From the NCBI GenBank assembly GCA_030447505.1, contig JAUJOT010000001.1, forward strand, positions 414,295 to 478,294: 64,000 bases of DNA. Reading direction: 5' to 3'. The translations under genes and the position numbers were made by a program. The notes below the pieces were generated by a model. It saw only the letters and a program-made list of their open reading frames with translations. It was not told the origin of the DNA and made no database searches. Positions 29,361 through 32,781 of this stretch are shown piece by piece; the first letter of the stretch is position 1, and each line of letters begins with the position of its first letter. This DNA comes from Solirubrobacteraceae bacterium. GTDB taxonomy: Bacteria; Actinomycetota; Thermoleophilia; Solirubrobacterales; Solirubrobacteraceae.

Positions 29361-29627
29361 ATGGAAGGTTTCGGAGGACTCTTCGGCGATCCCGAGGAGC
29401 TGAGCAAGCGGATGGCGGAGTTCGCTGAGCAGATGCAGGCCCAGCAGGGCCTCGCGTGGGCCGACAACGCGATCAAGCTGGCCGTCGAGATGACGGTCGC
29501 GGCGATCAACCGGATGAACATCCAGGGCACCGTCGAGCAGCAGGCCGAGCAGATCCGCTCGGTCATGGCGACGGTCTTTCCCGAGGCGGTCGCGCTCGTG
29601 CGCGAGGCGCGCTCAGGCCTTCAGTAG
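29361..29627 (+). CDS. Small helical protein of unknown function
   Basis: 88 residues, MEGFGGLFGDPEELSKRMAEF..., predicted largely helical with Gln-rich heptad-like stretches (MQAQQGLAWADNAIKLAVEM). No membrane segment or signal peptide. A TACGCT box (29349-29354) ends 6 nt before the ATG, supporting a real leaderless gene. Its last 7 bp overlap the end of the convergent membrane-protein gene. No family recognised. Confidence 0.65.
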   Translation: MEGFGGLFGDPEELSKRMAEFAEQMQAQQGLAWADNAIKLAVEMTVAAINRMNIQGTVEQQAEQIRSVMATVFPEAVALVREARSGLQ

Positions 29628-30634
29628 GCCGTCTCGCGTACGGCCTCTGCGCGCTCGGCGGCCCGCTCTGCGTCGCGCTCGGCCCTGCCCATGAGAACCG
29701 CCTCCTTGAAGGAGCGGATCCGGAAGATCGAGACGAGCGCGCCGAAGCCGGCCGCGATCGTCGTCACGGCGATCACGATCTGCTGGCCCACGGAGTAGGC
29801 GGCGACGGTTGCGCCCGACGCCGCGCCGGCGAAGACCTTCACGAGCAGCGCCTGCTGGACGCCCGCGCCGCCGGGCGTGAACGGCACGACGGCCGCGACC
29901 GCGTTGACGCCGAGTACGAGCAGCACGTTGCGCACCGAGCCCCCGACGTTGAAGGCCTCGAGCAGAAACCAGAACGCCGTGAAGCGAAAGCACCAGCCCG
30001 CGAACTGCCACGCGAAGACCTCGCGCAGGTAGCGCCGGCGGTCGCGCAGGATCGTCAGTCCCTGGCGCACCCGCGCCCAGAACGCCTTGACGCGCTGCGA
30101 GAGGACGGCGAAGGCGACGAGCACCGCGATCGCGAGCGCGGTCAGCACGAACAGCGTGAACTTCGGATGCCCGGCGAAGAACGCCAGGTCGAAGGCGTCG
30201 AGCTTGGCGAAGTCCGGCGGCTTGGGGAACACGCCCTGCGTGAACGCGAAGCTCAGGATGAAGACCGCCATGACGGCGTCGAAGACCGCCTCCACGAAGA
30301 TCGCCGCGCCGACGGCCGGATACGTCGCGTTCGGAATCGAGCGCTTGACGAGAAACAGCTTGATGACGTCGCCGCCGCGGGCGGGAATGACGTTGTTGAA
30401 GCCATAGGCGGCGACGTACGCGCCCCAGATGCGCCGAAACTGGATCCGCTCGTCCGGATAGGCGGCCTGCAGGGTGTGAAAGAACGCGCGCGAGCGCAGC
30501 GTCAGGTAGATGACGAAGGCGAGCGCGCCGATCAGCAGCGACAACCAGCCGACGCGCGAGAGGCTGTCGAAGAACGAGCCGACCGCGTCGAAGAACGAGC
30601 TGATGTTCGAGCCGATCGAGGCCTGGACGAGCAT
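29621..30634 (-). CDS. Flippase-like integral membrane protein (UPF0104/YbhN, lysylphosphatidylglycerol-synthase TM-like)
   Basis: 337 residues, about seven to eight helices. The family motif is visible in AYGFNNVIPARGGDVIKLFLVKR, with the later VPFTPGGAGVQQALLVKVFAG loop. Members are thought to move lipids or act as the flippase part of MprF-like proteins. The start is placed at ATG 30634 (MLVQASIG) rather than 30676 because TAGTCT on the minus strand (30648-30643) stands 8 nt upstream. Charged C-terminal tail. Confidence 0.82.
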   Translation of the reverse strand: MLVQASIGSNISSFFDAVGSFFDSLSRVGWLSLLIGALAFVIYLTLRSRAFFHTLQAAYPDERIQFRRIWGAYVAAYGFNNVIPARGGDVIKLFLVKRSIPNATYPAVGAAIFVEAVFDAVMAVFILSFAFTQGVFPKPPDFAKLDAFDLAFFAGHPKFTLFVLTALAIAVLVAFAVLSQRVKAFWARVRQGLTILRDRRRYLREVFAWQFAGWCFRFTAFWFLLEAFNVGGSVRNVLLVLGVNAVAAVVPFTPGGAGVQQALLVKVFAGAASGATVAAYSVGQQIVIAVTTIAAGFGALVSIFRIRSFKEAVLMGRAERDAERAAERAEAVRETAY

Positions 30635-30648
30635 CCCGGCAGAGACTA

Positions 30649-30905
30649 CGGGGGGTCGAACATTCATCGCCTGCACTCAGACATCGCTCTGCGGATGCCG
30701 ATGCTCGCCAGACATGGCAACGGCGATCCTCGCTTCGCAGCGCCCGCGCGTCGTCGTCTCCGCTCGACCGTCGCCGTCGACCGGGCCTGCTGTGGCCACT
30801 GCCAAGACGCGCGAGCAGCTCGCGGCCGCGAAGCTCGAGCGCATCCGCCAGCAGCTTCTGGCGCTCTTCTCGAACGCGCGGACGGTCGCCACCTCGGCAC
30901 CGTGA
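30649..30905. other. Intergenic stretch with a doubtful 63-codon ORF
   Basis: Between the flippase-like gene and the riboswitch. The only candidate is an ORF at 30714-30905 (plus strand, ATG, MATAILASQRPRVVV...), with a helical C-terminal part (REQLAAAKLERIRQQLLAL). It has no -10 box or ribosome-binding site near its start. It may simply be the transcribed region upstream of the riboswitch. Confidence 0.25.
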
Positions 30906-30907
30906 CA

Positions 30908-30993
30908 GGGGCAGCCGGAAATCGAAAAGGCAACCCCGTCGCGAGGCGGGCGCGCAAAACCAGGGGCCTCTAGAAGGCCGCCCAGTTGCCGAA
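30908..30993 (+). promoter_or_regulatory. c-di-GMP-I (GEMM) riboswitch
   Basis: The RNA fits the GEMM-I layout. A closing helix pairs GGCAAC (30929-30934) with GTTGCC (30985-30990). P2 is a GC stem capped by a GCGA (GNRA) tetraloop, CCCGTC-GCGA-GGCGGG (30934-30949). It is followed by the hallmark CGCAAAACC, and P3 starts GGGCC and ends GGCCGCC. The final GTTGCCGA matches the 3' consensus. It ends just before the GAAGGGGG ribosome-binding site of the secreted protein gene at 31004, so ligand binding could control translation. Recognised by eye, not by covariance search. Confidence 0.75.
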
Positions 30994-31003
30994 GGGGGCA
31001 TCC

Positions 31004-31831
31004 ATGTCTCACTCCCGTCGTATCCTCGCCGCACTGGCGACGCTCGCTGTGCTCGTGGCGGCTCCCGCCACGGCATCGGCAGCGAAGTCCTCGTCGAAGG
31101 TCGCGTCGACTGCGAAGGTGCAGGTGCACGTCGACAAGGCCACGAAGGCCGTCAAGCGCATGAAGCGCTACGCACGGCTGGGCAACGGCAAGGCCGTCGC
31201 CAAGCAGCTGAAGATCGCTCGCTCGCAGTCGGCCGCCGCCTCGCGGATGGCGCGTCAGATGGCCGTCACGGCCGCGCCGGGCACGAAGAGCATCGCCGCC
31301 GCCCAGGCGCTGACGCTCGCAGCCACGCAGTACGACCAGCTGGTCGAGACGATCACCGCGATCGTCGATCAGATCAGCGGTCAGGTCCAGGCGCTCGTGG
31401 CGAACTCGATCGCACCGAGCCTCGCCGGCAAGCAGAAGATCGTCGGGGTCCTCACGCAGCTGCTCGACCAGGTGCCTGCCGAGGCTCAGCCGATGATCGC
31501 GTCGATCATCGCCGCGCTGTCCGTCGGCGACGCCGACGAGGTCGTCAACCTCGAGCAGGCGCTTGACTCGGGCAGCCTGCCGAGCGCCATCGCCGGCACC
31601 GTCAGCCAGGCGCTCGGCATGGCGACGGGCATCATCGACCAGGCGTTCGCGATCGTCGAGTCGATCGTCCCGCTGCTGCCGGCCGCCGTCCAGGCCCCGC
31701 TCTCGCAGATCCTGAACACGGTCACCGCGACCGTCGGGACGATCGTCCCGGGCGTGCTGAGCCCGGTCACCGGTCTGATCGACAACCTGCTGGGCGGCCT
31801 CCTCGGCGGCCGGGCGACTCCCGCCACATGA
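31004..31831 (+). CDS. Secreted Ala-rich helical protein under c-di-GMP riboswitch
   Basis: 275 residues. A Sec signal peptide is clear: MSHSRR, hydrophobic ILAALATLAVLVAAP, then cleavage after ATASA near residue 27. The mature part is basic near the start (KATKAVKRMKRYARLGNGK) and then long amphipathic and hydrophobic helices with Gly/Pro breaks (IVPGVLSPVTGLIDNLLGGLLGG). Function unknown; riboswitch control suggests a role in surface or biofilm state. The ATG 31004 is preferred over TTG 30986, which lies inside the riboswitch. The 3' end overlaps the convergent acetyltransferase gene by 65 bp. Confidence 0.78.
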   Translation: MSHSRRILAALATLAVLVAAPATASAAKSSSKVASTAKVQVHVDKATKAVKRMKRYARLGNGKAVAKQLKIARSQSAAASRMARQMAVTAAPGTKSIAAAQALTLAATQYDQLVETITAIVDQISGQVQALVANSIAPSLAGKQKIVGVLTQLLDQVPAEAQPMIASIIAALSVGDADEVVNLEQALDSGSLPSAIAGTVSQALGMATGIIDQAFAIVESIVPLLPAAVQAPLSQILNTVTATVGTIVPGVLSPVTGLIDNLLGGLLGGRATPAT

Positions 31832-32408
31832 GCCACAGCGGCGGCCCCTCGGGCAACTCGACGCGCTCGGTGACGGCGAAGCCGTGGCGGGCGTAGAAGG
31901 AGACATTGCTCTCCCTCGAGCACTCGAGGTAGGCCGCCGTCCGGGTCTCGTCGCAACGTCGAAGCACCGGAGCAAGCAGGGCGGAGCCGATACCTGCGCC
32001 CTGCTGCTCCGGGTCGGTGCCGATGACCGACAGGTAGAAGTGCGGCTCGACGGGATGGTGGCGCTCGATCTCGCGCACCGCATGCGTGCAGGACACGATC
32101 CGCGGTAGCAGGACCGGCAGCATCGGCAGCTGCATGAGCGACTGGCGCAGGCTCTCGCGCCATTGCCCGGGCGGGGCCCAGAGCGCCGCCCCGGACCGCT
32201 CCGCCGTCGTGTAGATCAGCCCGTGGACCGCGAGCTGGCGCAGGCGGATCGAGAAGAAGCGGCGCGCGTGGCGCATCCGGCTCGAGGCGTCGGGATAGAA
32301 CCACGACGTCACCGGGTCGTCGAAGAAGGCGTGCGCGAGAACCTCCGCCAGCGGAGCGTAATCCTCGCGAAGCGCAGGCCGCGCGCTCGCGGGCGCAGAC
32401 GTCACCAT
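31767..32408 (-). CDS. GNAT-family N-acetyltransferase
   Basis: 213 residues. Acetyl-CoA-binding motif A is LSVIGTDPEQQGAGIGSALL (Q-x2-G-x-G), followed by YLECSRESNVSFYARHGFAVTERV. Substrate unknown. Start ATG 32408 is supported by TAGAAT on the minus strand (32422-32417) 8 nt upstream. The last 65 bp run through the end of the convergent secreted-protein gene, so the tail GRRGGRPAGCRSDR may be a late extension. Confidence 0.82.
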   Translation of the reverse strand: MVTSAPASARPALREDYAPLAEVLAHAFFDDPVTSWFYPDASSRMRHARRFFSIRLRQLAVHGLIYTTAERSGAALWAPPGQWRESLRQSLMQLPMLPVLLPRIVSCTHAVREIERHHPVEPHFYLSVIGTDPEQQGAGIGSALLAPVLRRCDETRTAAYLECSRESNVSFYARHGFAVTERVELPEGPPLWLMWRESPGRRGGRPAGCRSDR

Positions 32409-32424
32409 CGCGGCCGATTCTACG

Positions 32425-32781
32425 TCAGTCGCCGAGCAGCTCGTGTACGCGCTCGACCGGCCGCGCAAGCAGCGCGCGGTCGCCGCGCACCGCGATCGGC
32501 CGCTGCAGCAGCCGCGGATGCGCGGCGATCGCGGCGATCAGTTCGTCGTCCGAGACGCCCTCCTCCAGCAGCCCGAGCTCCGCCACGAGCGGCTCGCGCA
32601 ACCGCAGCACGTCGCGCGGGCCCAGGTCGGCCTTCGCCAGCAGGTCGCGAATCGTCTCCTCGTCGAGGCCGGTCTCGTGGTACTCGACGCCGGTGTACTC
32701 GATCCCGCGCTCGGCCAGCAGCGCCGAGAGGTTGCGGCATGTCGAGCAGCTCTTGACCTCGTAGATCGTCAGGTCGTGCAT
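32425..32781 (-). CDS. ArsC/Spx-family reductase-like protein
   Basis: 118 residues with the thioredoxin-fold ArsC pattern: the N-terminal strand and active-site loop TIYEVKSCSTCRNLSALL, then IEYTGVEYHETGLDEETIRDLL. Late in the protein comes HPRLLQRPIAVRGDRALLARP, the substrate-site Arg region of the YfgD/ArsC family. It may reduce arsenate or a thiol substrate; no ars genes are nearby. The start MHDLTIY at 32781 gives the normal length; the frame remains open upstream without coding character. Confidence 0.85.
   Translation of the reverse strand: MHDLTIYEVKSCSTCRNLSALLAERGIEYTGVEYHETGLDEETIRDLLAKADLGPRDVLRLREPLVAELGLLEEGVSDDELIAAIAAHPRLLQRPIAVRGDRALLARPVERVHELLGD

What the first reader, a model, noticed from the sequence alone, without database searches (positions are those of the whole stretch)
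30908..31831. c-di-GMP riboswitch controlling a secreted helical protein of unknown function
The RNA has the closing helix, the GNRA-capped P2, the CGCAAA core and the GTTGCC 3' end of the GEMM-I class, ending at the ribosome-binding site of a signal-peptide protein. It sits at the edge of the surface-polysaccharide locus and links c-di-GMP to envelope change.
Basis: partly seen in the sequence, partly recalled or inferred. Interest (0 to 1): 0.62.

Follow-up and report, generated by a model that had tools for sequence, protein, structure and literature searches.

The report
c-di-GMP switch in a sigma-factor module
A real c-di-GMP-sensing RNA sits in front of a secreted helical protein gene, and relatives show that the pair normally belongs to a small conserved unit with its own membrane-tethered sigma factor, which in this copy has been almost entirely deleted.

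Summary
Confirmed: window 30920-30994 (+) is a GEMM-I (c-di-GMP-I) aptamer ending at the ribosome-binding site of a signal-peptide, all-helical protein gene (31004-31831). Rfam's best label is the variant class c-di-GMP-I-GGC, but the diagnostic pocket base (A47) is A, not G: G20/A47/C92 are canonical in 44 of 44 aligned relatives, so c-di-GMP is the best ligand prediction. The protein belongs to a family with no Pfam or NCBIfam model; 19 of 28 homologue loci have the aptamer directly upstream, and in 13 of 28 the gene before it is an ECF sigma factor with a tethering extension. In the host genome four of five GEMM-I matches precede paralogues of this protein and the fifth (truncated) precedes a sigma gene. 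Sigma genes and riboswitch genes share a promoter element that is nearly absent elsewhere in that genome. The window copy is a natural deletion: only 63 in-frame codons of the sigma gene remain, and the helical gene's own promoter is gone. I infer a two-input unit: tethered sigma sets transcription, c-di-GMP gates translation. The direction of the switch and the protein's function are not determined.

The parts
30676..30702 (+). remnant of the sigma-gene promoter (CTCAGAC ... TGCCGAT)
   Evidence: DNA alignment with four genus relatives: CTCA and TGCCGAT invariant; promoter role is inference
30714..30905 (+). 63-codon in-frame mini-ORF: first ~16 codons of the sigma factor joined to part of its C-terminal tail; sigma-2, sigma-4, metal-motif and TM parts missing
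   Evidence: translation; tblastn of relatives' sigma tails: 50% over 30 aa, E 5e-6, and 46.5% over 43 aa, E 8e-6, in a 2-kb database; DNA alignments; no Pfam hit
30920..30994 (+). GEMM-I (c-di-GMP-I) aptamer; pocket bases G20=30929, A47=30956, C92=30989
   Evidence: Rfam RF03167 60.3 bits and RF01051 54.4 bits; pocket columns; covariation
30993..30998 (+). Shine-Dalgarno-like AGGGGG, starting at the last base or two of the aptamer
   Evidence: sequence
31004..31831 (+). secreted, Ala-rich all-helical protein (275 aa); about 80 aa shorter at the C-terminal repeat region than its nearest orthologue
   Evidence: translation; homologues and alignment; no Pfam/NCBIfam family
29621..30676 (-). LPG_synthase_TM protein; upstream neighbour conserved in the genus
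   Evidence: Pfam PF03706 E 7.5e-26; synteny
31767..32468 (-). GNAT acetyltransferase; downstream neighbour conserved in the genus
   Evidence: Pfam; synteny

Best explanation
This is a c-di-GMP-I riboswitch that controls translation of a secreted helical protein. It is one copy of a repeated unit in Solirubrobacteraceae: ECF sigma factor gene, then a shared ECF-type promoter, then the GEMM-I aptamer, then a helical secreted protein. Shown by sequence: the aptamer and its canonical pocket, the recurrent gene order, the sigma identity in relatives, the promoter element common to sigma and riboswitch genes, and the deletion of sigma in this copy. Inferred: the sigma factor, released from its membrane tether by an envelope signal, transcribes itself and the helical-protein genes; c-di-GMP then decides, through the aptamer that abuts the Shine-Dalgarno sequence, whether the protein is made. 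In the window copy the deletion removed the sigma domains and the helical gene's own promoter and left the sigma promoter in front, so the riboswitch and gene are probably transcribed from that promoter by a paralogous sigma. Off-switching by c-di-GMP is slightly more likely than on-switching, but no computation here supports either direction.
For: Aptamer. Direct adjacency to the helical gene in 19 of 28 homologue loci; aptamer end to start codon 7-22 nt in 19 of 19, leaving no room for a terminator. Own genome: four of five GEMM-I matches precede this family, the fifth (truncated) lies upstream of a sigma gene. Genus: 12 of 22 GEMM-I matches in 7 genomes precede the family, one of the 12 broken. 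Sigma directly upstream of riboswitch plus helical gene in 13 of 28 loci, and sigma adjacent in some orientation in 17 of 28; Sigma70_r2 above cut-off in 10 of 10 sigma proteins scanned. A locus from another GTDB family that was not in the training set shows sigma, promoter-like element, riboswitch and helical gene in order (L036). Promoter element GATAGNTGCTGACA with up to 1 mismatch: 6 places in 3.84 Mb, five of them at this unit (three riboswitch genes, two sigma genes); reversed-pattern control 0. Six GGDEF domains and one EAL domain. Window deletion.
Against: Nine of 28 homologue loci have no detectable aptamer and 8 of 28 have no sigma neighbour (2 more untestable at contig ends), so neither part is obligatory. 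Two tests of the expression platform failed: the upstream flank does not pair better with its own Shine-Dalgarno region than with others' (permutation p 0.41), and forcing the aptamer opens the SD in 4 and closes it in 5 of 19 leaders. The family-wide promoter motif is only moderately above chance once near-duplicates are dropped (207.0 against 181.7-199.7 in 20 shuffles); the genome-wide pattern was taken from three of the sites it finds, two of which are recent duplicates. The window's own promoter is an inference from homology. No binding, expression or structure data.
Confidence: 0.72

Rival explanations
1. It belongs to the orphan variant class c-di-GMP-I-GGC and senses another ligand than c-di-GMP.
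For: RF03167 outscores RF01051 in the window (60.3 against 54.4 bits) and is found in 119 of 299 genomes of the class.
Against: The RF03167 consensus carries G where this RNA and 44 of 44 aligned relatives carry A (the A47 position); G20, A47 and C92 are the ligand contacts in Vc2 (PMC4744006, passages read). The genome has diguanylate cyclase domains.
Confidence: 0.1
2. The window copy is a decaying locus: promoter and sigma lost, riboswitch kept only by recent descent, gene not expressed.
For: Sigma gene internally deleted, own promoter deleted, protein shortened by about 80 aa; a related copy in another genome (L071) lost both sigma and riboswitch.
Against: Aptamer pocket, SD, start codon and reading frame are intact, the two remaining sigma pieces are joined in frame, the protein deletion is in frame, and the sigma promoter remains in front.
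Confidence: 0.25
3. Riboswitch and sigma factor are neighbours by co-inheritance only; there is no regulatory link between them.
For: The sigma type is common in the family (135 of 146 genomes), most such sigmas are not beside a riboswitch in the lists seen, and near-duplicate units inflate the counts.
Against: Order kept in 13 of 28 loci with proteins as little as about 25-35% identical, kept in another GTDB family, and a promoter element shared by sigma and riboswitch genes.
Confidence: 0.2

Closest known systems
c-di-GMP-I (GEMM-I) riboswitch, Rfam RF01051
   Same: Fold, covarying P2 and P3, GNRA loop, canonical G20/A47/C92 pocket, placed in the leader of a secreted-protein gene
   Different: Scaffold scores higher with the GGC variant model; aptamer abuts the SD with no separate expression platform; repeated in front of paralogues of one uncharacterised family
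c-di-GMP-I-GGC, Rfam RF03167
   Same: Best-scoring model (60.3 bits)
   Different: Lacks the G at the A47 position that its consensus shows
ECF48/ECF52/ECF53 sigma factors (ECF52: SCO4117 of Streptomyces coelicolor; PMC5826349 and PMC8999054, passages read)
   Same: ECF sigma domain followed by a zinc-finger-like HxxxCxxC motif, a hydrophobic segment and a long Pro/Ala-rich tail; positive autoregulation has been proposed for SCO4117
   Different: No carbohydrate-binding domain or Pfam zinc finger found at E 0.01 in 10 scanned; putative targets gated by c-di-GMP riboswitches; the window copy lacks the sigma domains

Membership tests
c-di-GMP-I riboswitch (RF01051) | covariance score above the curated cut-off | tested here: met
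   54.4 bits against 35
c-di-GMP-I riboswitch (RF01051) | G20, A47, C92 contact bases | tested here: met
   G, A, C in the window and in 44 of 44 aligned aptamers
c-di-GMP-I riboswitch (RF01051) | paired P2 and P3 with covariation | tested here: met
   98.9% and 92.3% of cells paired
c-di-GMP-I riboswitch (RF01051) | binds c-di-GMP | not testable with these tools
   needs in-line probing or calorimetry
c-di-GMP-I-GGC (RF03167) | covariance score above the curated cut-off | tested here: met
   60.3 bits against 59
c-di-GMP-I-GGC (RF03167) | G at the A47 position (reading of the class name inferred from the model consensus) | tested here: not met
   A at 30956; A in 44 of 44
ECF sigma factor with fused anti-sigma extension (ECF48/52/53-like), in relatives | Sigma70 region 2 and region 4 | tested here: met
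   r2 above cut-off in 10 of 10, r4_2 in 8 of 10; absent from the window remnant
ECF sigma factor with fused anti-sigma extension (ECF48/52/53-like), in relatives | zinc-finger anti-sigma domain and transmembrane segment | tested here: inconclusive
   HxxxCxxC read by eye in 12 of 13 full-length proteins; no Pfam zinc-finger hit in 10 scanned; no TM predictor run

The most novel reading that the evidence does not exclude
A dedicated two-input output unit: a membrane-tethered ECF sigma factor transcribes itself and a family of secreted helical proteins, and each riboswitch-bearing target mRNA carries its own c-di-GMP sensor, so an envelope signal and c-di-GMP are combined at every such target. 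In this PilZ-less genome the unit would account for the whole GEMM-I regulon and be a main known outlet of c-di-GMP.
Probability: 0.42. Interest if true: 0.66.

Novelty: new variant of a known kind. Interest (0 to 1): 0.52.

Why it matters
It joins two signalling routes that are usually studied apart (ECF sigma factors and c-di-GMP) in one portable gene unit in a little-studied soil lineage, gives a first handle on an uncharacterised family of secreted proteins, and shows that the automatic label c-di-GMP-I-GGC can be wrong about ligand class when the pocket base is not checked. Natural sigma-minus and riboswitch-minus copies make the model testable by comparison.

Tried and rejected
Ligand other than c-di-GMP because of the GGC label: rejected on the pocket base. 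Extended P1 pairing that would hide the Shine-Dalgarno: looked convincing by eye in several leaders, failed a swap test and an accessibility test. Structure route: AlphaFold2 on two sequences gave pLDDT 42, so no fold search was run; PDB sequence hits were mainly designed helical repeats and are read as composition. No c-di-GMP-II riboswitch above cut-off. Weak Pfam hits of single members (FdhE_N, Phasin_2, ApoLp-III, PSMbeta and others) are below the curated cut-offs or isolated and were not used. The first family-wide promoter test (365.3 against 237.5-252.3) compared unequal numbers of restarts; it was repeated with equal effort, 19 less redundant sequences and dinucleotide shuffles, with a much smaller margin. 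Dropped before counting: L070 (matches only over the first 80 residues, a different secreted protein) and L083 (fragment of the L055 locus) from the 30 homologue hits; L065 and L070 from the promoter set. The covariation alignment left out the truncated aptamer L005 and near-duplicates; of the 50 aptamers extracted, 50 carry A at the A47 position, and 21 of 22 genus matches show it by pattern.

Full report
The observation. The window holds one gathering-level Rfam match in 64 kb: RF03167 (c-di-GMP-I-GGC) at 30920-30994 on the + strand, 60.3 bits, E 9.8e-12, end to end. RF01051 (c-di-GMP-I) matches the same place with 54.4 bits. On 44 related aptamers the fold is paired in 93.3% of cells, with 11 pairs changed on both sides; slid controls give 27-46% and 0-3. 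This is not chance.

Which ligand. The two models disagree in name only. The consensus of RF03167 has G at model position 37, the place of A47 in the Vc2 structure; the window has A (alignment, base 30956). The three contact positions are G, A and C in 44 of 44 aligned aptamers; that G20, A47 and C92 are the contacts is stated in PMC4744006 (passages read). I read 'GGC' as those three bases; that reading is inferred from the consensus, since the papers that define the class are not held. Three held papers mention the class by name; in two I read passages, which only list it among c-di-GMP riboswitches; the third was seen only in the listing. The genome encodes 6 GGDEF domains and one EAL domain, no PilZ domain and no c-di-GMP-II riboswitch above cut-off; a GG[DE]E-type motif can be read in five of the six GGDEF loci, and the sixth was not reported by the script.

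The protein. The ORF at 31004-31831 gives 275 residues with a signal-peptide-like start, Ala-rich helices and a Gly/Leu-rich end. It has no Pfam or NCBIfam family, nor do its homologues in a consistent way. A structure prediction with two sequences is all-helical but unusable (pLDDT 42). A search of 146 genomes of the same GTDB family finds homologues in 17 (one of the 17, G258, is the dropped L070 hit). The closest named record is a Solirubrobacteraceae MAG.

The pair is a unit. The own genome has four copies of the protein family and five GEMM-I matches. Each of the four proteins lies directly downstream of one match. The fifth match (29.7 bits with RF01051) is truncated and lies upstream of a sigma-factor gene. 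Of 28 homologue loci, 19 have an aptamer above a curated cut-off directly upstream on the same strand and 9 do not. In the genus, 12 of 22 GEMM-I matches in 7 genomes precede the family, one of them broken. The distance from aptamer end to start codon is 7-22 nt in 19 of 19, so a terminator cannot fit and control is most likely translational. Of the 30 listed loci with the best class-wide RF03167 scores, one encodes the family (L036); most of the others precede ORFs with signal-peptide-like starts (read by eye).

The missing partner. In 13 of 28 loci the gene before the riboswitch is an ECF sigma factor on the same strand; in 4 more a sigma gene is adjacent in another arrangement (downstream in L072, divergent in L079 and L081, upstream of a copy without an aptamer in L075); the window holds a remnant; 8 have none; 2 are cut off by contig ends. 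Sigma70 region 2 is above cut-off in 10 of 10 scanned, region 4 in 8 of 10. These proteins continue into an HxxxCxxC motif, a hydrophobic stretch and a Pro/Ala-rich tail (by eye), like the ECF48/52/53 groups described in PMC8999054 and PMC5826349 (passages). L036, from another GTDB family and not used in finding the unit, has sigma, promoter-like element, riboswitch and helical gene in that order (its aptamer is one of the 44 in the alignment).

Shared promoter. The three riboswitch genes of the own genome outside the window carry GATAGNTGCTGACA; the two sigma genes beside them carry the same element with one mismatch; only one further place in 3.84 Mb fits (that place was not analysed further). 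Three of the six hits are the sites that the pattern came from, and two units are near-duplicates, so the independent information is that the sigma promoters share it and the rest of the genome hardly does. Across the family a looser two-part motif reaches 207.0 against 181.7-199.7 in 20 shuffles.

What happened in the window. Relatives keep the order LPG_synthase_TM (-), sigma (+), riboswitch, helical gene (+), GNAT (-), ArsC (-). The window keeps the flanks, the sigma promoter (30676-30702) and a 63-codon ORF that joins the sigma N-terminus to a piece of its tail; a second deletion took the rest of the tail and the upstream half of the helical gene's promoter. The riboswitch is therefore probably read from the sigma promoter by a paralogous sigma factor. 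This is inference.

Mechanism and its limits. I could not determine the sign of the switch. Pairing between the upstream flank and the Shine-Dalgarno region is no better than with swapped partners (p 0.41), and forcing the aptamer fold opens the SD in 4, closes it in 5 and leaves it in 10 of 19 leaders. What the protein does is unknown; a structural or surface-active secreted protein whose amount is set by c-di-GMP is my guess from its make-up and from what GEMM-I switches usually control.

Novelty. Full-text searches found no paper joining Thermoleophilia and riboswitch, and nothing that looked relevant for Solirubrobacter with c-di-GMP (listing) or for riboswitch, c-di-GMP and ECF sigma factor (listing); only open-licence papers are held. 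That the host lies in this class is inferred from the named MAG; the lineage above family level is recalled. The riboswitch itself is a new member of a known class; the sigma-riboswitch-secreted-protein unit is, as far as these searches show, a new arrangement of known parts.

Noticed in passing
own genome, whole: No PilZ domain although there are six GGDEF domains and one EAL domain: c-di-GMP outlets other than riboswitches are not obvious.
   Followed up: partly
L016-L045 (class-wide aptamers): Most GEMM-I elements of this class precede ORFs with signal-peptide-like starts, several alike (for instance L037, L038, L041-L043, and L017, L039, L040).
   Followed up: no
L046 7919-10831 and L047 8638-11815: Two near-duplicate sigma-riboswitch-helical units on different contigs (sigma pieces 97% identical), with ORFs that look like transposase and integrase pieces near the first (names by eye).
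   Followed up: no
L093 and L094: A riboswitch-less paralogue of the helical protein is transcribed away from the sigma gene, giving sigma two helical neighbours, only one of which is riboswitch-controlled.
   Followed up: partly
L088 (G175, second copy): A homologue 58% identical to the window protein has no sigma neighbour and no recognisable aptamer; only an eroded 3' end seems left.
   Followed up: partly
Rfam RF03167 in this class: The GGC model is the best Rfam match for aptamers that all carry A47, so automatic annotation would name the wrong variant class.
   Followed up: yes
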